Positions 3,325 through 59,445 of a stretch of DNA of 64,000 bases are shown here, in pieces; position 1 is the stretch's first letter, and each line of letters opens with the position of its first letter. The notes under the pieces are model-generated. The model was not told the DNA's origin and ran no database searches. It worked only from the letters and a program-made list of their open reading frames with translations. The stretch is from Apostichopus japonicus (lineage: Eukaryota > Echinodermata > Holothuroidea > Aspidochirotida > Stichopodidae), in contig NC_092576.1 in the NCBI RefSeq assembly GCF_037975245.1, positions 7,084,501 to 7,148,500 of the forward strand. The letters are read 5' to 3'. Both the position numbers and the translations under genes were made by a program.

Positions 3325-4172
3325 TCACAATGAAATGACTTTAATGCGTTTGTTACCAGCATCAACAACCATCAAAAATTTCTTATTTTGACAACGGTAA
3401 TAGTGAAGCCCACGAACAAAGTCTAAAGTTTTGCTTTCCCAAAACCACGGTTTCGGACTATTCTCTAACGTTATCCACCTCTTCTTGTGTTGGATGTAGC
3501 GCAAGATACACTCGTCTTGTGCTTTATATCCGGGATTTCTCAGTGCAATATAAATGTTACCCTTGTTATCTATGTCCATTCCTCTGCAATGGTTATTTGT
3601 TTTTACAGTATAAAGTCGGTTTATAAAATTATATGAATAAACATCAACTGCCATTCTTGCAAAGTCAGAAATGAAAAACTCATCTGAGCTACTTTTCTTG
3701 ATGTACCAAGGATCTTCAAGACTATTACTACAATAACATCTTAAGTATCTACCATCGGAAGTAAATTTGGCTACTTCAGCCGACTCTTTCTTCCTACCTG
3801 TCAATACGTAAATATTTCCTCTCTCACATGACGTAATACCTGCAGGTTCTATAATGTATGGTTTACCAAACCTTTTCTTCACCTTCAATGCTTCATCAAA
3901 TGTTATGACACATTTACTCTTCTTGTCTGTAACACATAAAGTAGCTCCCAGGAAAGTTGCGGCAAATGGTTTAAAACCATCTTCTTGGTAACGCTTAATC
4001 CTGTTTCCTTCCATGTCATAAGCGTAGATTCCTCCATCCATCAATATAAAAATCTGATTTTTGAACGTTGTGACGTCGTGAGGTTGTAGTATACCTGATA
4101 TTTCTTCGAATCTTGGCGGTGCGTTGGTTTCTTCGAGGCTTTCGTTGATTTTATTTTGAGTTGTTTCTTGAC
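3325..4172 (-). CDS. NHL-repeat gene copy 1, terminal exon (six-bladed propeller)
   Basis: This is the last exon of a minus-strand gene, about 281 codons ending in TAG. It starts after the acceptor TTATTGACAG (intron phase 1). Six blade-like segments can be counted, each with a hydrophobic strand ending in a short turn; examples are QIFILMDGGIYAYD, AGITSCERGNIYVL, FFISDFARMAVDVY and FLMVVDAGNKRIKVISL. This is the pattern of NHL propellers, which bind RNA or protein partners in TRIM2/3/32/56/71-type proteins. Fold recognition is by eye. The coiled-coil exons lie upstream at 5.1-6.4 kb. The paralogue at 53,495-54,330 is close over its whole length. The partner and the function are unknown. No RING or B-box is visible, so calling it a TRIM is inference. 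Confidence 0.85.
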
Positions 4173-4239
4173 CTGTCAATAAGATATAACTTTAAGGAGA
4201 TGTTGGTATACAAAATGGAGTAGGGATGAATCGGGAGGC

Positions 4240-14204: not shown

Positions 14205-14340
14205 GTAAAGGTGAAACAGAAGTACCTAAGAGTTCAGATAGACACAGGGTCGACTCAGTCCATAATGCCACATCATGTCTATCAGTCGTTGGGATGTACA
14301 CAATAACTAAATAGCTCGAAACACAGATTTGCATCTTACA
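14205..14340 (+). pseudogene. Gypsy aspartic protease remnant
   Basis: The active-site tetrad DTGS is at 14,241-14,252 in the context VQIDTGSTQSIMP, the start of a retropepsin domain. The frame is closed by stops just upstream (GACAGTAAAGG region) and downstream (CAATAACTAAATAG). Confidence 0.75.
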
Positions 14341-14357
14341 CCAGTCATCAGCTACAG

Positions 14358-15180
14358 GTGAAGGGATGTGTGAGGCTGCCTGTCAAACACAAGGACAAAC
14401 GCGTAAACGTCAAGTTTTACGTGATCCATGTTGACAATAAGTTGCCATTATTATCAGGTGATGCCAGTACGAAGCTACACCTAATTAAAAGGATTCACAA
14501 CATAGACCAGTACTCTGAGTTGAAATCCACGACTGGCACTCTACCAGGTACCTATACTTTAAAGATAGATCCAACAGTCCCACCTGTGGTTCACGCTCCA
14601 ATGAGACAGCCACATGCTCTCATGGATAGAATTAAGAAGAAACTAAGTGAGATGGAAAAGGAAGGTCACATAGCCAAAGTGACAGCAGAGCCCACAGACT
14701 GGGTGAATTCAATAGTCACCGTCGTGAAACAGTACAAGGTCAGAATTTGCCTTGATCCCAAGGATCTAAATCGAGCTACCAGAAGAGAACATTACAAGAT
14801 ACCGACCGTGGAGGAAATCGTGGCATCAATACCTGATGCAACAGTGTTCTCTGTTCTTGATGCAAAGTCGGGGTTCCTACAGATAAAAATATACTATGAA
14901 TCCAGTTTGCTGACAACATTCAACACACCAATCGGTAGGTACAGGTGGTTTCGCCTACCTTTCGGCATAAAGAGTGCTCCAGAGATGTTCCAGCGAATAA
15001 TGGACAACATGCTCTAAGACATTGAAGGAGCAAGAGCCATAATGGATGATGTCCTGATTGCATGAAGAGACATCACATCCCACGACAAGATCGTCAACCA
15101 GGTGATTGCCAAGGCCACAGAATGGAACTTGAAGCTAATTTTTGCTTAGTGCCAAATTCGACAACCCAAAGTGAAGTATG
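14358..15180 (+). pseudogene. pol: Gypsy reverse transcriptase, interrupted by stops
   Basis: The frame 14,358-15,017 carries the N-terminal connection and RT palm: VRICLDPKDLNRA, FSVLDAKSGFLQI (14,847-14,885, with the catalytic Asp) and RYRWFRLPFGIKSAPEMFQ. A TAA at 15,015 stops it. The second catalytic box, IMDDVLIA, follows at 15,036-15,060 in the same frame and is closed by TGA. The motif set is Ty3/gypsy, where YxDD/xxDD and LPFGLxxAP are diagnostic. Confidence 0.92.
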
Positions 15181-15244
15181 TTGGCCATCTGGTAACTAGC
15201 ACATATCTCTTGCCAGAGGAAGAGAAGGTCCGGGAGTAAAAGAT

Positions 15245-15934
15245 ATGCCCAGACCACAAAATCAGCAAGATGCCAAACGCTTTCTCGGCTTCCTTCAGTA
15301 CCTCTCCAAGTTCATCGAAGGACTGAGTGAGATAGATAAGCCTCTCCGAGTGCTGACAAAGAAGGAAGTGATTTTCCACTGGGACAAGCCTCATGAGGAG
15401 ATTTTCAAGCATCTTAAGGAGTTATGCACAGCTCCAGTCCTTACCTTCTATGATGTTTCAAAAGATGTACAAATCCAATGTGATGCGAGCAGCTATGCAC
15501 TTCATGGAGTACTCCTGCAGGACGGCAAACCCGTTGCTTACACGTCAAGAGCAATGACGCCTACTGTGATGCGCTATGCGCAAATCGAGAAGGAAATGCT
15601 AGCCATTCTCCATAGCTGCGAGAGGTTTTATCACTATATCTTTGGCAAAAGAGTAAAAGTGCACTCAGACCACAAGCATTTGAAAGCATTATTTAGTAGA
15701 CCGTTGCTAAAGGCACCCATGAGACTACAGTCTATGATGCTAAGGCTCCAAGCATACGATCTTGATGTATGCTATAAGCCTGGCAAAGAGATTCCAATAG
15801 GAGAGACCCTTAGCCGATCTAACATACCAGATGTCGAACCAGACAAACCATTAATTTTAGTAAACATGATTGACACCTGGCAGTGTCCAAAGAGAGATAT
15901 ACACAGTTTCAGAAGTGCATTGCAAACGAGCTGA
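15245..15934 (+). pseudogene. pol: Gypsy RNase H and tether domain
   Basis: Open frame of 229 codons. It begins with RT thumb text (RFLGFLQYLSKFIEGLSE), followed by the RT-RNase H connection and an RNase H domain: QCDASSYALHGVLLQDGKP (first Asp), YAQIEKEMLAIL (Glu) and KVHSDHKHLKALF (Asp, His). It ends with a linker (YKPGKEIPIGETLSR, where the usual 'ADxLSR' is changed). The frame is lost at 15,934; integrase continues in the +1 frame from 15,883. Confidence 0.9.
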
Positions 15935-34459: not shown

Positions 34460-37085
34460 TCAGCCCGGGCGCTCAACTTTCAAACCATGCAGGGAGAGGC
34501 AAAATCATATTCAAACCACGACCACCGCCAGGTTAGAACCTGCTTGTGAGAACCCTGCTCTACTAAAAGTGAAATTCTAGTTACATTTAGGATTGCTCAT
34601 TAATATTTTCAAATCATCATCATTGTCATGGTTGCTACTTTTTCTGATGTCATCATCATTTGTGAATTATTGTGATTGTTGCCATGTTACATTTGCCAGT
34701 ATCAATTTTGCTTATTGTTCTCTCAAAATTGCAGAGTAGAAGGAAGAAATGTTAGCTAATAGTTATTATACTATATGTTCTTGGTCTCTAAATTGTTTAC
34801 TCTGAGGTCAGTATGTTTATAATAGTTTTCCTTTCTGTTAAAGTATTTTCTGAATCATTTCATTAATTTTATATTTATACTGGAATTTTCAGTAGGTGTT
34901 GGCCTCATTGAGGGTCAAGGCTACTCAAGGTCAGTAGAGTAACATAGAGCATCTAACTCAACAAGGAAAAGTTGGTAGTCATATGTAGTGCATATAGGTT
35001 TCTGACATTGAGTACTATTCTATAAACAGTATAGCAGAAGCCCATGTGAGATAACCAGATATCTGAATCTGAAAGCCATGTTAACATGATAGTTCAATAT
35101 TGGAATGATGAATGGAAGTTTGTATGCAGGTGTATCATGTGCTGAGCTATTAGCCAAGCCAAAGGTTATTTGAGGCCAAAATAGGTAAAATCTGAAAACC
35201 TTCATGATCCCATACTATCTAGTATCTGACTAGTAGCTGCTTTAATAGCTGAATCTTAGGGCAATTAATATATTTATCAGAACAAGTAATGTACCTCAAA
35301 AGACTTCTTAAGCTCTTTTGAGCCCCATTCAATATTTCAGTGTATTAACTTCATCATTCTTTTAACAAATTTACTCCAAATTGCTAGTTTCATGTTCTGG
35401 CAATGAACCTATGTCATATCATGTTGCATGAGTGCTGTAACTGGTTTACAAGCTTGCAAAAGTCTTAAAAGGAGGATAGGGTGTTGGGATAAATAGTTCA
35501 AATAATATTAACAAAATTGTACCATATTTTGCTTTTCTTTTTTCCCATATGTTGCCACTGCTTGAATAAGACTAGTTGATAGGACTTTTTGTGAGCTCCA
35601 CCTTTGACAACAAGGTACAGTAGACTTCAACTGCATCTTGTTGGCAACATCCTAGGAAAGTTTCAATAAACACAGATGTTTCTATAAATGAGGAATCTGA
35701 TGAACATTCCAATACTGCAAGTCTTTATTGGACATTTCAGCAGGAGGCAATAACCAATTCTGCTATCGTTACATACTGTAGGTCCTTCATAAAATGCCAC
35801 TTAAAGAACTGTATTACTTCCTTGGAAGGTGAATTTTATTGTCAAATACAACATCTGTCAAATATTTAGTTTCCCAACCTGTCCAACACCTCCCCCCCCC
35901 ACCCCTCCATTTATCACGAGTAGTTTACAGAAACTGGGACAGAACATTTTTTGTGGGAAACAAGGTTAAATAATGTTGTTTGAGGTATTGAGCATTTATC
36001 TATATGTCCCTTTCGAAACTAGATAGGAGGAAGTAGCAAACAATGCAAGGAAAACATGAAGTTCAAGTGGATGCTTTAATTGCTTTTACCCAAAACATTG
36101 CTATATTCATTGATAAATATAATCCACTTCAAATTCAGTACCGTTATACAACATGCAAAAGAGTTATGATATTGATGTACTTTCTGAATTTAGACCATTG
36201 CAGGTGAACAAGTTTAACATTGGTTTTTAATTTGACTGTATGTAGAAAACACCGGTTACATAATGAACCTCAGATACAATGTCGTGCAAATGCATATAAC
36301 TGCTAGGAGCTGTTTAACAAACAGTGAAAGAAAAATTTATTACTTGACTATCAAAAGATTCGCAGAACTCCACTCCTTCAACAATATTTACAGTGGTGCA
36401 GACTTCAAAGCAGTGCAAGGGCAACAACTGTCTATCTCTTTAAGAAATTTCCAAGTGCTTTCATTTCTAGCATTTGCATATGTTCAAAAGAAAAATGACA
36501 AATTAAAAGATGTGGTCTTTTCAACATGTTACCACATCTCCCCCCCCCTCTCTCCCCCATCAAAAAAGTATTGCATGTACAGCAGTAACCCTTTTTGTAC
36601 ATGTGCAATATATGGGGCAGAGCCTTATTCATGACTTGACCAAGCCCTTTATCCATTTGAATAGCACAAGTTATGTCAGTGGTATTCACATCAATGCCTC
36701 ATTGAAAATGTGCATCATGGTGAATTTTCTAGCTGATAGCATGAATGTGAATGAGCTGAAGTTGTTGAAGTTGCTTTGTTTATATATTTCTGAAAGTAAC
36801 ATGAAATTTCATATTGATTTTTAATGAAAATATTTGCATTTATCAGTAATAAACAGAAAGAAGACATAATGATTTCTGCTAAAGTGTCTTATCTCTGCCT
36901 CTTATGTTACAAATATGTTCATTGGTTGGAGCTTGTACTTCGAACATATTGCTCCCTAACTCAGCTGGGAAGTGTTATTTCCAACGATCTAGGAGGTCTT
37001 TATAGCTGAAAATTTCCCGTATGCTGAGCGCCAACCCATATGGTGGCACTCCACTCAGGTAGTAACAAGACGCCCTCCCAGGAAT
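34460..37085. other. Intergenic, no gene recognised
   Basis: AT-rich sequence with short C-runs (35,890 and 36,541). Short open frames at 36,263-36,824 have no recognisable domain and overlap on both strands. Confidence 0.55.
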
Positions 37086-37089
37086 TGTT

Positions 37090-37145
37090 CAAGCCCCCCC
37101 CAAGCGCCCACCCCCTCCACTGGAACAATCCTGGCTACGTCACTG
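37090..37145. mobile_element. Isolated DNA-transposon terminus
   Basis: Ends AATCCTGGCTACGTCACTG; the reverse complement, CAGTGACGTAGCCAGGATT, is a common type of MITE/hAT terminus in animals. No partner end is found nearby. Confidence 0.4.
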
Positions 37146-37343
37146 CATGTACCACAGGTTTATCTGATATCAAAGTGAAAGCGGCTTTCCACAAGAATAA
37201 AGAAAGCATATCTACATTTTTGTGTAACACCTACACAACTCAATCCCCACGCAAACAAGACTACCTACGTATAGTTTTCATTGAGGATTCCAATAATTCC
37301 TGCAATTTCCTACCAATAACATATGGAAAGTCACTCCTGTTAT

Positions 37344-37719
37344 CGTGGCGGAGCTAGGGGTATTGGTAAGAGGGGGTGAGAATGGTCTGTATGGGCGCTT
37401 TCGACTTTATCTAAGCGGAGCGCCACCACAGGTTGGCGCAGAGCGTACAGAGATTTTTTGAGTAAAGATACTCCCTATATGGCCGGAAATGACCCTTTCC
37501 GGCCTTGTTAATTTGCAGATAAACGAAGAATAAATAGGTGTCATCGCCAACAAAATTTGACAAATGTCAATAGGTAGATGAGAGCGCCATAAAAAAGTCA
37601 ATACTCGCGAATAAGTAAAAGAAGTGATCAATAGCTGAAAAGGGCGCCAGCAGTCCATATTAGTCCGTTGAGGGGGGGGGGGGCATCCGCCCCCTGACTG
37701 TATTGACGCTCCGCCACTG
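37344..37719. mobile_element. hAT-like MITE, copy E1
   Basis: 376 bases with inverted ends: 5' C(A)GTGGCGGAGC (the A is lost) and 3' GCTCCGCCACTG. It matches E2 (39,443-39,778) throughout, including CGACTTTATCTAAGCGGAGC. Flanks are CCTGTTAT on the left (37,336-37,343) and TTGGGAGC on the right (37,720-37,727). It has no coding capacity. Confidence 0.9.
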
Positions 37720-37727
37720 TTGGGAGC

Positions 37728-39434
37728 TCAGTGTAGGAAGAGAAGGGGGGAGAGGGAGGGTATTTTTTAACGGTTTGGGTGAGCGTCTGCAATGATTCGT
37801 AATGACATGTTATCACAAGCGTTCAACATGCTCAAATAAAAAGAATGAATGAGGAGGAGTTCATATCACTTTTTAATCATTTTTTGAAACAAATTGAGTG
37901 AATTGATCGCTAGTAATCTTGAAATTGGTTTTATCACGGTCATTGTCATGTTTCTCATATGTACCTTTCTCATATAAAAGAATTCTGTACGTAATGTTAT
38001 CAGAAATACTTTTAAAATGACACCAAAGAGATTAAAAATTCTTTTCGAATTTGTTAATAATATTGTCTTTTAAGAGACACCGTAGACACGTTGCTCGGTT
38101 GGGTTTACTGCAATAGTGGCAAATGGAGACCAATATCCGCACTTAGTGGACCTAATGTTATAGTCGTGCATTGACCTTGAACAGAGGGGCCTACCGTGAA
38201 AACGTACGGAAAATTCATCCTTTTATATCTCAGCGAGACAATTCCACTGGATACAATAATACGACTCAAAAGTCCTTAGATGTGGTTATCATAACAATCA
38301 CAATAAAAGATATGTATGAAAAGCAGAACAAAGATATGATGGAAACTCAAATGTGGACCAAAAAACGATGTCCCTATGGATGCCGTTTAGTGACATTTAC
38401 ATAATTTGTGTGTAGTAGGTTCCGTAGCTCTTTTGTGGAAAAACTTTATAATATGCTTAAAGTTGGTAGTTCATCCATGCTTTAGATTAATGAGAGACAC
38501 AGATCATCACGTTTTATGAGGAGGGAGGCTATTTTTAAAAATCTGGGTAATAGGTACTGTAACTCTTTTCTTGGAGAAAGCTTGGAATAGGCGGATAAGG
38601 AAGAAAGTTTCGAGTTCCTTCCACGCATTAGATAAATGAGGGACCTAGTTCATCACGCTTTGCGAGGATATCTCATATATTAGGTGTAAGAGAAGCGGTG
38701 ATTGTAAGGAAGGGAAGGGGAGAATGGGGGGGGGGGGATAAATGATGTTACCAGGGGACCTAATAATATGTCCTAAATGAGATTTAAAAAATTCATTAAT
38801 GTAAGTAAATTTCATTACTGCCTGCTCTCGCTGATTTCTTTTAACCCTATAGAGCGGAGTGTGTGAGGTGAAGAAGGGTAGGGCAGGATGGGGGAGGGAT
38901 GATAAATGACGATGTAACCAGGGGGCTAATAATTCGTTCAATAAGAGATTTCAAAATATATATATATATATGTAAGTTAATATCATTACTGCCTGCTCCC
39001 ATTGATTTCTTTCAAACCTAAGTTACGCTTATCGGAAGACTATACGCCGATAATACAATTCTTTAACAAGGAGATGCTTCTAATTTATTAAACTGTGTAA
39101 CTTTCACTAATCTATTTGGAAAAAAATATGCTTTTAAGTTGAAAGACTCAGTAAGGATCAATTAAGTAGAACAAGGATCGTTGCGTGCTGCGTGTAACGA
39201 TGAAGTTTCCTACATTGGGATGGAAGAGTATCAGGGAGTGTAAGATTGAGTGGGAAGTTAAATGACGGTGTAACTGAGAAATTAAAAAAAATCTTAGTGA
39301 TAAAATCATTATTGCTTGCTCTTTGCTGATTTAACATTAGAATAAGTGTCTCTAATCATTAGATATTCCTTTAACATACGAGGTTCGGTTGGGGAAGGGG
39401 GGGGGGGGTCTAGACGGTTTGACGGGGAAGAAGA
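37728..39434. other. Interior segment of the composite hAT insertion
   Basis: Bounded on both sides by TTGGGAGC. It contains degenerate tandem modules: a ~150-base pair at 38,410-38,680 (ACTCTTTT...GAGGGACC-like), and three modules near 38,720-38,850, 38,880-39,015 and 39,225-39,330 sharing GATAAATGA, ATGTAACCAGG and TCATTACTGCCTGCTC. G-runs occur. No gene is recognised. Confidence 0.7.
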
Positions 39435-39442
39435 TTGGGAGC

Positions 39443-39778
39443 CAGTGGCGGAGCTAGGGATATTGGTCAGAGGGGCGAGAAAGGTCTGTACGGGCGCTTT
39501 CGACTTTATCTAAGCGGAGCGCCACCACAGGTTGGCGCAGAGCGTACAGAAATCTTTTGAGTAAAGATACTCCCTATATCGCCGGAAATGACCCTTTAGG
39601 TATAGGTGTCATCGCCAACAAAATGTGACAAATGTCAAAAGGTAGATGAGAGCGCAATAAAAAAGTAAATAATCGCGAATAAGTAAAAAGTGTTGAATAG
39701 CTGAAAAGGGCGCCAGCTTCCCATTTGAGTCCGCCCCACCCCCCCCCCCCGCCTGACTGTATGGACGCTCCGCCACTG
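39443..39778. mobile_element. hAT-like MITE, copy E2
   Basis: 336 bases, same orientation as E1, with intact CAGTGGCGGAGC and GCTCCGCCACTG ends. Flanks are TTGGGAGC on the left (39,435-39,442) and CCTGTTAT on the right (39,779-39,786), the reverse arrangement of E1's flanks. A ~45-base stretch present in E1 after ACCCTTT is missing. Confidence 0.9.
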
Positions 39779-39949
39779 CCTGTTATGACATTAGAAACAA
39801 ATACTGATATGAGATGAGTGTGGTATATACCTACTGGCGACTGATAACAGTATTATAGCGCATGTTCTAGCCTTTTGACATCGTATGAATCTCACGGACA
39901 ACGTACAGGTACCGTCTGGTACCATTATCCGTTTTGAGTGATATTTAGG

Positions 39950-40845
39950 GGTTCTAGGACAAAATCCCCCGGACAAAATCCCCCCAGACAATATCCCACT
40001 GACCCATACAAAGCCGGCCTGCAACAACCAGCGATGGCCCAGGTGTGACAGTCGAGGCATGGGACATTGCACTAGTTAGGGTACCGTTCAGGGGATTGGT
40101 CAGGGTACTAGTGAGGGTACTGGCGAGTGTAACTGTGAGGGCTCCTGTTAGGGTACCTGTGAGGGTACCGGTCAAGGTACTGGTCATGTGACTGGTCAGG
40201 GTACCGGTCATCATACTGGTCACTCTACCAGTCAGGGTTCCACTCAGTGTACTGGTTAGGGTACTGGTCAGGATACTGGTCAGGGGACTGGTCCGGAGTT
40301 CATTGAGGGTAATTGCAAGGCTACCTGTTAGTGTGGCCATGGGATATAGCTCCATGTTGTGACATTTAAGGGACCGGTCAAGGTACTGGTCAAATTACTG
40401 TTTATTGTACCAGTACTAGTAAGGGTACGTGTCAGAGTATGTGTCAGGGTGCCTTTCAGGATACCAGTTGGGATACCGGTCGAGGTACCGGCCGGGGTAC
40501 AGTCCAGGGTACTGGTCAGGGAGGAGTACCGGTGGGGGTAACTGTCAGGCTCACTATTAAGGTACCGGTCGGGGTATGGTCGGAGTACTGGTCCGGGAAC
40601 CACTGAGAGTACCAATGGAAATACTGGTGAGGGTACCGGATGACGGTACTGGATGACGATACCGGGGACCGGGATGATGCATTTTTGTAAAGAATTGATG
40701 GGATTTTTTATAGCTTGGGGAGATTTTGGCTTGGGTGGATTTTGTCCTAGGGGGATTTTGTCCAGGGGGATTTTGGCTCTGGGGGGCTCTGGGGGATTTT
40801 GTCCTAGGGGGACTTTGTCTGGGGGATTTTGTCCTGTCACCCTAT
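39950..40845. repeat. Foldback-like element with GGTACCGGTC minisatellite core
   Basis: The left arm (39,955-40,000) repeats GGACAAAATCCCCC. The right arm (40,730-40,845) repeats the complement, GGGGGATTTTGTCC, several times. Between them (40,075-40,660) lies a minisatellite of ~12-base AGGGTACYGGTC units, in direct and partly reversed order. Inverted arms made of short tandem repeats are a feature of foldback elements. Open frames across it (Thr-Leu-Thr-Gly repeats) are artefacts. Confidence 0.75.
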
Positions 40846-47565: not shown

Positions 47566-50407
47566 GATGGGAATTGTTCCTCTTCATATTTCTTAAAGAT
47601 AACATTTTATTTTTTGTAAATTTGAATTGGTATTTGGATCAATAAATATCTATCATCTAACTCTCATGCTTCTCATAAATAAACATAGCAATGTACGTCG
47701 GTTACGACAACTCTCCCGCCTAACTGACACCCGACTGGTTTCATGCAAATATCTTTCACAACCATTTCGCCTAGCATATGCCAGCGGTCACATTTTTCAT
47801 ATAGCTTTAAACTCCAGAGGGAAACTCCGGAGGGAGTTTGTGAGAGAAAGGTGAAATAAAATATGCACATAATTTGCTTTAAGCCTTTGCAGTCAAATAA
47901 GACAGTCTTAAGAAGAACAAGCACATGCGGTAATATGATGTGAATTCTGGAAAAACTTGAGGCCTGTTATAATTCATGTTTTGTCCTCATATTATGTTAA
48001 AGCTAGTTACAAGTTATGTTCATCAGATTGAATAGTCATGTTTCAGTTCACAAAAAGAAATGGAGTTACACACGATCAGTATGTTGTCGTTCCTGGGTGC
48101 AACTCAAGTACAGACATAGAGATTACCCTACAACAAACTGCTTGCTTGTTTCAACCAAAGTGTATTCTGATCCTGTATGCATGAGACCTTTGCAAAGTAA
48201 CTTCTGTCATCGTTTAAATAACATTTCATTGAAATTAGGAGCATTTGAATATAAAAATAAAACTACCTAAATAAAAGATGGCGCTACATCACTACTCAAC
48301 AATCGGTTTTAATGAAAAGTCTGTAAATAAATGCGGTGAGTAATCGACGACCAGCTCATGACAAAATCCAGGTTATTGTTTATTGTGTTCAGTTTAGATC
48401 TTATTTTGTATAATACAGGTTCTCATAAATTAGGGCAAAATACGAACTCGATGTGATACGTACTAGAGGTCGCTTTCTCATCTTATCTGCAGGAATTGTT
48501 AAAAGCAATTGTGAAATTTATTGAATGAATGTAGCCTATATACACATAATGTCAGTGTTAGCTACGTATATGGTCATAACATCAGGCTGAACAGTAATCA
48601 CTAGAGCGAAATTGATAAGAATATGTAATTACGTACTGCAGGCTAACTACAATTGCCACCTATGTGCACTGGTCACATCTTCAATGAAGGTCTATTTTCT
48701 GTACAATTATAATAAAACACAAACACAACAAAATATATCAAACTAACGAATAGAAACAGCAATTGACATATTCAATCTTAGAAATATCTAGTATTTAATC
48801 AATGTAATAATACTTTACAATCACGAGCATTATGATAGATACATTCTTTTTCTTCACTTTCACAAAATACGTATGTAAGTTATAAAGTTGATTATGTCAT
48901 CTATCTATTCGTGGGAAACCATTTCTTTTTTTGGCAATGAGTACTAAAACAAGAATGAAAGTATAATTACTAAGTAGCTTATCACCTAATGACCTCTCAA
49001 AAATAGTTCCCAGAGTATGAGTTTCTGTTTGCCACCTTTGAGCTATCAATACCAGTTTTGTTAAGACTGGGTTCTCGAAATGGGATCAGGTTAGGAGTTA
49101 TACACAGTACGAAAAGGTCAAAATCTAATCTTCAACAATCTTCCTATAGATTTTGTTAAATCAGTTTATTTTGATCCAGTAGCGTGTGCAAGTGGGAGGG
49201 ATGCGGTGGCGCGAGGTGGGGTGGGAGGGGGGTGGGGACATTCACCCCACCTCCAAAATTCACTCGAAGTAAATAGTTCTTTCGGGGCACATTTGTTTTC
49301 AGGCTTGGTAGAATTGGACCACTACTACCAGATGTTCATCGCTCACCCTGTTTTTGACACATTACACAAAGTATTCCTTAGCGTAACATTCCATTGAAAG
49401 CCAGTGATATAGATCTAAGTTATAGTCTAAATATGCTGCAGAATACACTACTTAACTTCTACTTGTACTTTTTTTCTGGGAGAGGACCCCCCTCTTTCAG
49501 CCCCCGTACACGAGAGTCAGATGCATTGACCCCACCGCAGCACCCATCCCATATGACATACTTAACCAGCCTCTGACACTCCCATAAAGATTCACTTACT
49601 AATTCTTTCTGGGGAATTTTGAATTTCTTATTGTTTATCATAGCCAACTTTTACCTTTTTGGATTCTAATATGGACCTATCTTATGATCTTAGTTCGCCT
49701 CAGAATGCACCTGTAGACGTCAAATTGTTTTCCAATAGTGGAGGATCCGAAATTTCCTTTCATATGAATCGGCTTTAAAGACCCAAAGGCAGCACCAGAT
49801 CCATTTTTAAATCCTTCTTTCGCCTTTGGCCTTTAATAAAAGTTCAGCCCCTATCTAATCAGTGGCGAAAATGTTGAATATCCCCACCTTTGAAATATTT
49901 TGTACCCTACTGGCATTGAAGTCCTTGTCAAAAATGAAGCCTACACTAAGTTTAAATATTCTTAATGACATAAAGAGAAAACGATTGGTTTAATAAAGCG
50001 ATATCAGCCCGAGACAAATGAACCTGATGAGATAAAATATCACTAATCAATCTATGTATTTAACAAAGTTCAAATACTTAGCAAATACTAATAATGTATT
50101 TCGTTAAATTTATATCTTAAATTCCAATTATTATCTGACACCTCGCCATTGGTCGAGAGGTTTGACGGGTTTATTGCTGCAATAACTAGAGTATTGTCAA
50201 ATATTCAGACAATCTTTTTCCCATAGGGTAATCAATATATATTTTTTCTGACGTATCGTTGCTAACACATGAATAGACCAGTTCATCGCTATCGATTTTA
50301 TCATCACCATCGTCGTCATTGGACTAGAGGGAACACAATTTTACATGGAAATATCATTATAAAACTTATTGCTTCATCAACATATTCGAAAATATATGAA
50401 ATGGTTT
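47566..50407. other. Intergenic, no gene recognised
   Basis: AT-rich. GC-richer patches at 49,180-49,260 (G-run text beginning CAGTAGCGTGTGCAAGTGGG, a possible transposon terminus) and 49,480-49,560. Nothing codes convincingly. Confidence 0.55.
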
Positions 50408-53494: not shown

Positions 53495-54330
53495 TTACAA
53501 TGAAATGACTTTAAGGCGTTTGTTACCAGCATCAACAACCATCACAAATTTCTTATTTTGACAACGGTAATAGTGAAGCCCACGAACGAAGTCTAAACTT
53601 TTGTTTTCCCAAAACCACGGTACTGGACTATTCTCTATCAAATCCCACTCCTTCTTGTGTTGAATGTAGCGCCGGACACACTCGTCTTGTGCTTTATTTC
53701 CGGGATTTCTCAGTGAAATATAAATGTTTCCCTCGTCATCTATATCCATTCCTCTGCAATGTTTATATGTGTTTACAGTGTAAAGTCGGTTACTAAAATC
53801 ATTTGAATAAACATCAACGACCATTCTTGCGAAGTCAGAGATGAAAAAACGATTTGAGCTACCTTTCTTGATGTACCAAGGATCTTCAAGACTACCTTTA
53901 CAATAACATTCTATGAACTCACAATCGGCATTAAATTTTGCTACTCTAGCCGACTCTTTTTTCCTACCTGTCAATACGTATATACAATTTTCCCTCTCAC
54001 ATGACGTAATACCTGCAGGTTCTTCCATGTTATCTTTACCAAACCAATTCGTTACATTAAATGATTCATCAAATGTTACGACACATTTACTCATCTTGTC
54101 TGTAACCCATAAAGTATTTCCCAGGAAAGTTGCGGCAAATGGTTTAAAACTATCATCTCCTTTGTAAAACTTAATCTTCTTTCCTGCCATGTTGTATGCG
54201 TTGATTCCTCCGTCCATCAATATAAAAATCTGATTCTTGAACGTGATGACGTCGTGAGGTTGGATTATGCCTGATATTTCTTTGAATGTTGGCGGTTCGT
54301 CGTTGATTTCATTGTCAGTTGTTTCGTGAC
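53495..54330 (-). CDS. NHL-repeat gene copy 2, terminal exon (six-bladed propeller)
   Basis: Paralogue of 3,325-4,172. It starts after the same acceptor, TTATTGACAG (phase 1), and ends in the same codons, AGNKRLKVISL, then TAG. Six blade segments are visible, for example NQIFILMDGGINAYN, AGITSCERENCIYVL, FFISDFARMVVDVY and FVMVVDAGNKRLKV. It is four codons shorter than copy 1, mostly in the acidic N-terminal linker. There are no stops or frameshifts. The molecular role is unknown; NHL propellers bind protein or RNA partners. Whether it is expressed depends on the upstream splice site discussed under helical exon 1. Confidence 0.85.
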
Positions 54331-54439
54331 CTGTCAATAAGATATACATTTGAACAGATTTAAGTATTAAAAATGGGGTAGGAAATAAGAAGGGATCAAA
54401 GCTGGAACCGGAGATGTAACGGGGCAGGAGAGGGTGGCC

Positions 54440-54740
54440 AATCCACCCCTTAAGGAATGCACAGAAGTAAGGACGAGTATGGGAGAGAGCAGGGAGTCAG
54501 GGAGCAGCAGGATTGTAAGGAGCTGGGAGGCAAGGAGGCAGGGCGGTAGTGATAAAGTGAGTCACGGATGTATTCAGCCAGGGCAGGGCACGAAGGAAAG
54601 GAGAAAGAGAGCCAAGGAGGCATGGAGACAGGGAAACAGGGGTAAGGAGGCAGGCAGGAAAGGAGACATAGGGACAGAAAAAACAATAAGACAGGGACTC
54701 ATGAAAGTAGGATGCAGGGAGAAATAAGAGAGTAGAGATA
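54440..54740. repeat. Purine-rich minisatellite in intron of copy 2
   Basis: Imperfect GGGAGGCAAGGAGGCA/GACAGGGA repeats matching the type in copy 1's intron. Open frames here are artefacts. Confidence 0.8.
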
Positions 54741-56606: not shown

Positions 56607-57270
<664 letters not shown>

Positions 57271-58953
57271 TACGATAGAAAGAGAGAATGTAATTATAAC
57301 TTACAACAGACTGGGTCACAAGTTATCCCTTAGTTGTCAACGACAGGCTGTTACACATAGTCTTTCAAAATGAAAGATGAAGTCATCTATGCAGCAATCA
57401 CCTGATTTACACAGCACGGCCCAGAATTCACTGTGGTACAAAGCATTAAGATATACAGTACTTACTGTGTTCTCTGCGTGTATCAGGTACAGCATTACAC
57501 TACCAATGGACTCTGTACTATTTAAACACTGTCCGGGTTTTGTAAACAAAAACATGATTAATCATGTAAAATAATTACCCTGAGACAATCCAGGATTGAT
57601 AACAAATGCCCTTTATAATGCCCTTGCATAACATTAATAGACTTCAGACTTATGCGTTTGATGTTACTAACATGAACAGAATAATAACCTAGAAATTGAT
57701 GAATAATAATTAAAACCCGTAGAAATTTGAAAAGTTGTTACCGGTAATCTTATCAAAGTTGACAATATCAACTACTAGTTAACGTTATCATCCAGGACTT
57801 AACGCAATAGCTATGCATTAATGCATATTAATAAAAACAAGTAAGGCACGCGTTAAGTAAAATGATCCGAGTTATTCAAATTCCCGTGTATGCATTAACT
57901 TGTTAATTGTTAGAAGGGTCACATCAAAATGTTTCAGGCATTCCAGGTTATAAATTCGTGAAGAGTGGAAGAACTGTTGACACCAAGGGTGAGGTAACAG
58001 AGGTGGTGGTGGAAGTGGTGTGGGGGGGGGGGTAGGGGGAGTGAAGGTTCCGACATAACTGTACTAGGTTTGGCGATAATATAGTGAATTATATTTTATT
58101 GAAGGGAATTATCACAATGTGAAAAGGTATGGAAGCTTCGACAATGACAATTTCAAGAGGAAGTTAATATATTTTATTCAGTTTACATTTAATAAGTGTC
58201 CTCTAAAGTTTCCTTTTAATTGTTTTCTTATTTTAACAAAACTAATATAATAAGCAATGATATTAAAAGCACGCACCTGTTTTGCCCTACCTCTCTTTTC
58301 GCACGCCTTCCTTTGCGCACGCCTCCCTTTGGGCACGCCACTGAGTATCAGTTACCAATAGTCCGACAGTAGATTAGGCCAAACATCAAAATAATTTAAT
58401 CATATACGTTCGCAAACGTTCAAATTCCGAAATGATCAATCATTTATATTGAGTTTAACAGTTTGTTGAACCTCCGGGTCGGACACTCACCCTCAACATA
58501 AATATATCATTGTGTCTATTAAGTTATCGTGTTTACGAGGTAGAGTTATTATATATTGCTCTGTTCTGTATATAGATATAATTTTACGACATTGTTAAGG
58601 CAAGGGTTACCTCGCACAAATTCGTATCAGTCTGTCATTAGATAACGCGAGGACAGTGCAACGTGGCTGTCAATGATTGCCATAATAACAATTGACAACA
58701 TATATTAAACTAAATGCCCGAATGGGTACGATAAGATTAGAGCAAAGGTTATTACTTTGGTGCTACGTGACTATTTATCTATCTTCGCCGCACTCGTAAA
58801 CTTTGTCTCTTATCTTTCATAATAAGTTATTTTAACAATGAGATAAGACAGCAAAATGAAAGCATCAAATTCCAGTTCTATTTTAATTTTGTTAGATCTT
58901 GAATACGAGGAATTTTGGTCAGCTTTCAGTGCGGTATACTTTTCTAGATTTAG
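57271..58953. other. Intergenic, no gene recognised
   Basis: AT-rich. G-run at 58,020-58,032. Near 58,300-58,342 the text GCACGCCTCCCTTTGGGCACGCCACTG looks like a DNA-transposon terminus with a repeated GCACGCC motif; its partner end is not found. Confidence 0.5.
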
Positions 58954-59445
58954 AGCATCCATCCATCCATCCATCCATCCATCCATCCATCCATCCATCC
59001 ATCCATCCATCCATCCATCCATCCATCCATCCATCCATCCATCCATCCATCCATCCATCCATCCATCCATCCATCCATCCATCCATCCATCCATCCATCC
59101 ATCCATCCATCCATCCATCCATCCATCCATCCATCCATCCATCCATCCATCCATCCATCCATCCATCCATCCATCCATCCATCCATCCATCCATCCATCC
59201 ATCCATCCATCCATCCATCCATCCATCCATCCATCCATCCATCCATCCATCCATCCATCCATCCATCCATCCATCCATCCATCCATCCATCCATCCATCC
59301 ATCCATCCATCCATCCATCCATCCATCCATCCATCCATCCATCCATCCATCCATCCATCCATCCATCCATCCACCCACCCACCCACCCACCCACCCACCC
59401 ACCCATCCATCCATCCATCCATCCACCCATCCATCCATCTATTCA
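58954..59445. repeat. (CATC)n microsatellite
   Basis: About 490 bases of CATC, with a CACC block near 59,372-59,403. Frames encoding Ile-His-Pro-Ser or Met-Asp-Gly-Trp repeats on either strand are artefacts. Confidence 0.97.

What the first reader, a model, noticed from the sequence alone, without database searches (positions are those of the whole stretch)
37336..39786. Two hAT-like MITEs with crossed 8-bp flanks form one composite insertion
The sequence reads CCTGTTAT - E1 - TTGGGAGC - 1.7 kb - TTGGGAGC - E2 - CCTGTTAT, with all four 8-mers exactly at the element ends. hAT elements make 8-bp target duplications, so the outer pair dates the insertion of the whole block, while the inner pair is the old duplication of a single E. 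Two models fit. In one, a circle carrying one E recombined into a resident E. In the other, a re-replication 'composite insertion' formed, as described for maize Ac/Ds, where right and left flanks of one donor E are joined. I know of no report of this in such an animal genome.
Basis: partly seen in the sequence, partly recalled or inferred. Interest (0 to 1): 0.88.

Follow-up and report, generated by a model that had tools for sequence, protein, structure and literature searches.

The report
Composite insertion built from two MITEs
In what is very probably a sea-cucumber genome, two copies of a small jumping element bracket 1.7 kb of other DNA, and swapped 8-letter tags at their edges suggest that the block descends from a single older insertion, although the route it took is not settled.

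Summary
The window reads CCTGTTAT (37336-37343), E1 (37344-37719), TTGGGAGC (37720-37727), 1,707 bp, TTGGGAGC (39435-39442), E2 (39443-39778), CCTGTTAT (39779-39786). E1 and E2 are directly oriented and hAT-like by form (12-bp inverted ends, 8-bp flanks); E1's left end has lost one base. Two window 8-mers agree by chance about 2.5-6 times in 100,000; here two pairs agree, crossed. Independent insertions do not give this: both inner flanks should descend from one E insertion, and the outer pair from one receiving site.

The host is very probably Apostichopus japonicus.

The route is unresolved. The search of the window's own genome answered 'busy' at all 18 tries, so no donor, empty site or genomic E copy outside the window was seen. 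I favour en-bloc movement of E-X-E as a macrotransposon, after a tandem duplication or a re-replication composite insertion. Recombination with a resident E (gap repair or a circle) is a strong rival. E1 and E2 differ at 20 of 320 aligned sites, plus a 31-bp gap and a changed G/C run, so the block is old or its copies were never identical.

The parts
37336..37343 (+). outer 8-bp flank CCTGTTAT, left copy (target duplication)
37344..37719 (+). E1, 376-bp MITE, hAT-like by its ends; left terminus one base short (CGTGGCGGAGC), right terminus GCTCCGCCACTG
37720..37727 (+). inner 8-bp flank TTGGGAGC, left copy
37728..39434 (.). interior, 1,707 bp; donor flank(s) carried inside the block; no Pfam match in six frames; any right/left-flank junction would lie here
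38704..39020 (.). diverged tandem duplication (period about 164-171 bp, 1.9 copies) inside the interior
39435..39442 (+). inner 8-bp flank TTGGGAGC, right copy
39443..39778 (+). E2, 336-bp copy of the same MITE with perfect 12-bp inverted ends; lacks 31 bp net in the middle and has a changed G/C run relative to E1
39779..39786 (+). outer 8-bp flank CCTGTTAT, right copy

Best explanation
A single E MITE once sat between two copies of TTGGGAGC at a donor locus. That locus gave rise to an E - TTGGGAGC - X - TTGGGAGC - E arrangement, either by an ordinary tandem duplication of about 2.1 kb that included E, or by a re-replication composite insertion from sister copies of E. A hAT-type transposase acting in trans used the left end of E1 and the right end of E2 and put the 2.4-kb block into CCTGTTAT, duplicating those 8 bp (a macrotransposon). 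Shown: the anatomy, the direct orientation, both exact 8-mer pairs. Inferred: descent of both inner flanks from one insertion, the transposase, en-bloc movement, and which of the two origins made the pair.
For: Crossed, exact 8-mers at all four ends, each pair with a chance of about 2.5-6e-5. Inverted 12-bp ends and 8-bp flanks have the form of a hAT MITE (the hAT rule is recalled). A block of 2.4 kb is small for a macrotransposon: in maize a 10.3-kb Ac block is reported to have reinserted and a 28-kb one to have excised (passages of PMC9910405). Re-replication composite insertions with 8-bp duplications are documented for Ac (passages and Discussion of PMC4270019). Perfect duplications are compatible with the E1/E2 divergence: 16 unchanged sites have a chance of 0.36.
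Against: No donor locus, empty site or internal junction was seen; the own-genome search did not complete. E1 and E2 differ at 20 of 320 sites, by a 31-bp gap and by the G/C run, while both versions of this model start them identical, so all of that must be later. No transposase was found (interior: no Pfam match; the rest of the window was not scanned for one). E1's left end is now damaged. Recombination models predict the same four 8-mers.
Confidence: 0.48

Rival explanations
1. Ectopic two-ended gap repair. A resident E already lay between two CCTGTTAT. After a break in it (for example an excision attempt), both ends invaded a donor E flanked by TTGGGAGC, copied past its ends into the right and left donor flanks, and the two overshooting ends were joined. 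The block is then repair DNA, not a transposed unit.
For: Gives the same crossed flanks in one event (inference) and allows E1 and E2 to differ from the start, as they do. Exchanged target duplications together with chimeric elements were taken as proof of ectopic recombination in a Drosophila Galileo inversion (passages of PMC2775673).
Against: Homology of only about 330-370 bp, and overshoot on both sides is required. Chimerism could not be tested because no other E copies were obtained beyond one diverged relative in the window.
Confidence: 0.2
2. A circular DNA of about 2.1 kb carrying one E with TTGGGAGC on both sides recombined with a resident E at CCTGTTAT.
For: Predicts exactly A-E-B-X-B-E-A with a single E on the circle; the size is small. 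Allows E1 and E2 to differ from the start.
Against: No circle or contiguous donor seen; rejoining the interior ends gave no convincing continuity with interior repeats, which is a weak test.
Confidence: 0.15
3. Repair or unequal exchange using a tandem array of E-bearing units as template, which inserted one unit into a resident E.
For: Same product as the circle model (inference).
Against: In the 64-kb window the interior has no match over 57 bases and the 200-bp outer flanks match elsewhere only in short pieces, the best at a minisatellite near 40.7-40.8 kb. An array elsewhere in the genome could not be looked for.
Confidence: 0.07
4. Two unrelated E insertions, or an X transposon that landed between two E copies, with chance-matching 8-mers.
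For: MITEs of this kind may cluster: a third, diverged relative lies inverted at about 36957-37145.
Against: Chance of one pair about 2.5-6e-5, two pairs and crossed; the interior's ends carry no inverted repeats of their own (by eye; none among the 5 pairs).
Confidence: 0.03
5. Assembly error or haplotype mis-join.
For: Cannot be excluded without reads.
Against: A collapsed or falsely duplicated repeat would not place two different exact 8-mers crossed at element ends; E1 and E2 differ in sequence and length.
Confidence: 0.03

Closest known systems
Maize Ac/fAc composite insertions (re-replication after reversed-ends transposition)
   Same: Outward-facing hAT ends, outer 8-bp target duplication, inner DNA made of former donor flanks.
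   Different: Maize donors hold two nearby elements, and re-replicated segments there range from 4,781 to 18,866 bp per fork; here identical inner flanks point to one donor element and the interior is 1.7 kb. No internal junction has been shown here.
Ac macrotransposons
   Same: A pair of element ends moves with the DNA between them; 8-bp duplication at the site (passages).
   Different: Here both copies are short MITEs, in an echinoderm; excision or re-insertion was not shown.
Drosophila Galileo inversion by ectopic recombination
   Same: Exchanged target duplications at two element copies (passages).
   Different: The Galileo copies are in opposite orientation at the breakpoints of an inversion; here they are in direct orientation and flank an insertion. 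Chimerism is shown there, not tested here.
Hybrid element insertion
   Different: The outcomes drawn there are inversions, some with a deletion or duplication, not an E-X-E insertion.
Macrotransposition proposed for a chimeric Anopheles P-MITE
   Same: A pair of related elements proposed to move en bloc in an animal (passages of PMC1562414).
   Different: Inferred there from two different subfamily ends; crossed duplications are not mentioned in the passages seen.

Membership tests
hAT-superfamily MITE (E1, E2) | short terminal inverted repeats of hAT form | tested here: met
   E2 CAGTGGCGGAGC...GCTCCGCCACTG perfect over 12 bp; E1 left end one base short; 'hAT form' is recalled
hAT-superfamily MITE (E1, E2) | 8-bp target duplication | tested here: met
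   met only as crossed pairs: neither copy has its own pair; no other copy could be checked
hAT-superfamily MITE (E1, E2) | multi-copy family with a cognate hAT transposase in the genome | tested here: inconclusive
   own-genome search unanswered 18 times; in the window one further, diverged relative
Composite insertion by re-replication (maize Ac type) | outer 8-bp target duplication around two outward-facing element ends | tested here: met
Composite insertion by re-replication (maize Ac type) | interior is right and left donor flanks joined at a new junction | tested here: inconclusive
   no donor locus obtainable; rejoined interior ends showed no decisive continuity
Composite insertion by re-replication (maize Ac type) | donor with two nearby elements | not tested
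   identical inner flanks argue for one element or a duplicated one; donor not seen
Macrotransposon | element pair and intervening DNA moved together with one target duplication | tested here: inconclusive
   anatomy fits; empty site not available
Ectopic recombination between two TE copies (Galileo type) | exchanged target duplications | tested here: met
Ectopic recombination between two TE copies (Galileo type) | chimeric element copies | not tested
   needs other E copies; the terminal repeats are too short for a within-copy test

The most novel reading that the evidence does not exclude
Probability: 0.18. Interest if true: 0.72.

Novelty: new variant of a known kind. Interest (0 to 1): 0.47.

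Why it matters
If E-X-E blocks with crossed duplications arise from single MITEs, then very short, abundant elements can copy and move kilobases of neighbouring DNA in animals, as macrotransposons do in maize. The crossed 8-mer signature can be searched for by simple means in any assembly, so the frequency of such events is directly measurable.

Tried and rejected
Chance 8-mers: rejected on frequencies. X as a transposon of its own with a TTGGGAGC duplication, landing between two E copies: rejected, its ends carry no inverted repeats (by eye; none among the 5 inverted pairs). LTR-like direct repeats: rejected as a reading, because E has terminal inverted repeats and the flanks are 8 bp (retroelement lengths recalled). 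Protein content of the interior: six frames with X at stops gave no Pfam family at E up to 1.

Were the two interior ends once contiguous? They were rejoined across TTGGGAGC and compared with interior repeats, 12 comparisons of 300 shuffles each. The right-flank start resembles 38521-38562 (1 of 300 as good) and the G-rich repeat at 38690-39030 (9 of 300); the left-flank end does not match the first (263 of 300) and matches the second weakly (12 of 300); the joined piece reached 5 and 38 of 300. Of the other six, four were unremarkable and two were trivial self-overlap (0 of 300). Not decisive.

A window-wide scan for inverted ends with exact 8-bp flanks gave 3 strict hits (2 in a TA run) and 8 loose ones (2 in the TA run), against 0-5 loose hits in 20 shuffles; none has ends like E's, and the scan missed this block because E1's left end is damaged.

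Polarising with the third relative: of 38 differing columns in a three-way alignment it has a base in 10, agrees with E2 in 5 (two of them poorly aligned) and with E1 in 1. It runs about 12 bases into the segment that E2 lacks (E1 position 167; to 190 in a looser alignment), which suggests, no more, that the gap is derived in E2. Longest identical run of E1/E2: not unusual (P 0.30).

Pattern scans: viral contigs with three E patterns gave 0, 1 and 0 stretches; in the one (L001) the 701 bases that I read showed no resemblance to E beyond the 17-base match. Genome contigs gave 0. A paper search for the end motif found 22 papers, 15 listed, with no title about transposons.

Full report
What is there. 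TTGGGAGC occurs only at these two places in the window, and CCTGTTAT at these two and once more at 47963; such numbers are ordinary for 8-mers, their placing is not. E1 (376 bp) and E2 (336 bp) lie in the same orientation and align end to end. E2 has perfect 12-bp inverted ends, CAGTGGCGGAGC and GCTCCGCCACTG; E1 has the same right end and a left end that lacks one base, so its boundary on that side rests on E2. Two 8-mers drawn from this window are equal with probability 6.2e-5, or 2.5e-5 from base composition; two matching pairs at fixed positions are not chance.

What the pattern demands. If E1 and E2 had inserted independently, each would have its own pair. Instead E1 carries CCTGTTAT on its left and TTGGGAGC on its right, and E2 the reverse. 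The inner flanks should therefore both descend from the two sides of one E insertion (or a copy of it), and the outer flanks from the two sides of one target. Moving two unrelated neighbouring copies together would give two different inner 8-mers and is rejected by the same arithmetic.

Host. The protein read from 53495-54349 on the minus strand matches an Apostichopus japonicus protein at 100% identity over 98% of the query, on a 46-Mb contig; of 14 hits 12 carry that species name and 2 have no name. The window is thus very probably sea cucumber.

Routes that fit. (i) The donor E lay in a segment that was tandemly duplicated, giving E-TTGGGAGC-X-TTGGGAGC-E, and transposase then moved this pair en bloc. 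(ii) A composite insertion by re-replication, as in maize; there the donors hold two nearby Ac elements, the outer duplication is 8 bp, and the former flanks are fused inside. (iii) Gap repair of a resident E from an ectopic donor E, overshooting into both donor flanks. (iv) A circle with one E recombining into a resident E. (v) A tandem array as template. The first two start with identical E1 and E2 and read the outer 8-mers as a new target duplication; the last three read them as the older duplication of a resident E. I put the first two together at 0.48 (about 0.3 and 0.18), mainly because each step is ordinary for hAT ends, and the other three together at 0.42. This is a judgement, not a calculation.

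What the copies say. In a gapped global alignment E1 and E2 differ at 20 of 320 aligned sites, 7 transitions and 13 transversions; E2 lacks 31 bp net in the middle, and the G/C run near the right end differs. Other alignments give other numbers: 38 differing columns, 79.7% identity by BLAST with gaps counted. A third relative, diverged and inverted, lies at about 36957-37145 (105-base match, 68%, E 2.8e-9) and runs about 12 bases into the segment that E2 lacks, which suggests that the gap is derived in E2. At a divergence of 20 in 320 the 16 duplicated positions would all be unchanged with probability 0.36, so perfect 8-mers do not argue against an old block. The divergence fits either an old block with once-identical copies or two copies that differed from the start. 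It does not separate the models.

What the interior says. Its longest match to any other part of the window is 57 bases at 65%. It has no Pfam match in six frames, and contains diverged local duplications at 38409-38668 and 38704-39020, with a 23-bp echo at 39252-39274. Rejoining its ends across TTGGGAGC gave no decisive continuity with these repeats. No junction can be placed.

What is missing. Hence no donor, no empty site and no family tree. Nothing here tests which route was taken.

Known kinds. Exchanged duplications are described for a Drosophila inversion flanked by chimeric Galileo copies in opposite orientation (passages of PMC2775673). Composite insertions and macrotransposons are known for Ac (PMC4270019, passages and Discussion; PMC9910405, passages; PMC3744419, three passages). 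En-bloc movement of a pair of P copies was proposed for a chimeric MITE in Anopheles (PMC1562414, passages). The coelacanth 'composite insertions' of PMC4255032 are LINE/SINE composites of another kind (passages). I saw no report of a directly oriented MITE pair with crossed duplications in an animal in the listings (12 of 12 papers listed; 20 of 650; 13 of 13; 10 of 859; 6 of 6; 8 of 8; 2 of 2; 10 of 1,061). Those listings were read by title and opening of the abstract, the library is open-access only, and one search was a poor search because 'hat' matched words such as 'hatching'. One relevant paper, on excision and re-insertion of Ac macrotransposons, was not held (its title is from the reference list seen). 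'New variant' therefore means new to what I saw.

Verdict. Real, well observed, and more specific than chance or ordinary clustering of MITEs. The mechanism is open between en-bloc transposition and recombination with a resident copy; the tests that would decide it are simple once the assembly can be searched.

Noticed in passing
36957-37145: A third, diverged and inverted relative of E (68% over 105 bases), with an end reading CAGTGACGTAGC on the minus strand from 37145; its other end was not found.
   Followed up: partly
14307-15934: Reverse transcriptase and RNase H reading frames (Pfam RVT_1; RT_RNaseH and RT_RNaseH_2), Gypsy-like by my reading.
   Followed up: no
3325-4191 and 53495-54496, minus strand: Two reading frames, 50 kb apart and alike by eye. 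The first has a Pfam NHL match, the second none; part of the second matches TRIM71/nhl-1-like proteins of Apostichopus japonicus.
   Followed up: partly
39957-39997 and 40716-40836: Short tandem arrays of GGACAAAATCCCCC-like units in opposite orientation on either side of a 12-bp minisatellite (40078-40293), just right of the block.
   Followed up: no
56608-57272 and 58956-59439: Long microsatellites, a TAATAA-type array of 665 bp and a CATC array of 484 bp.
   Followed up: no
39028-39066: A short stretch of the interior reads by eye like a reverse-transcriptase YADD-type motif (LYADNTIL) followed by a stop; Pfam gives no match.
   Followed up: partly
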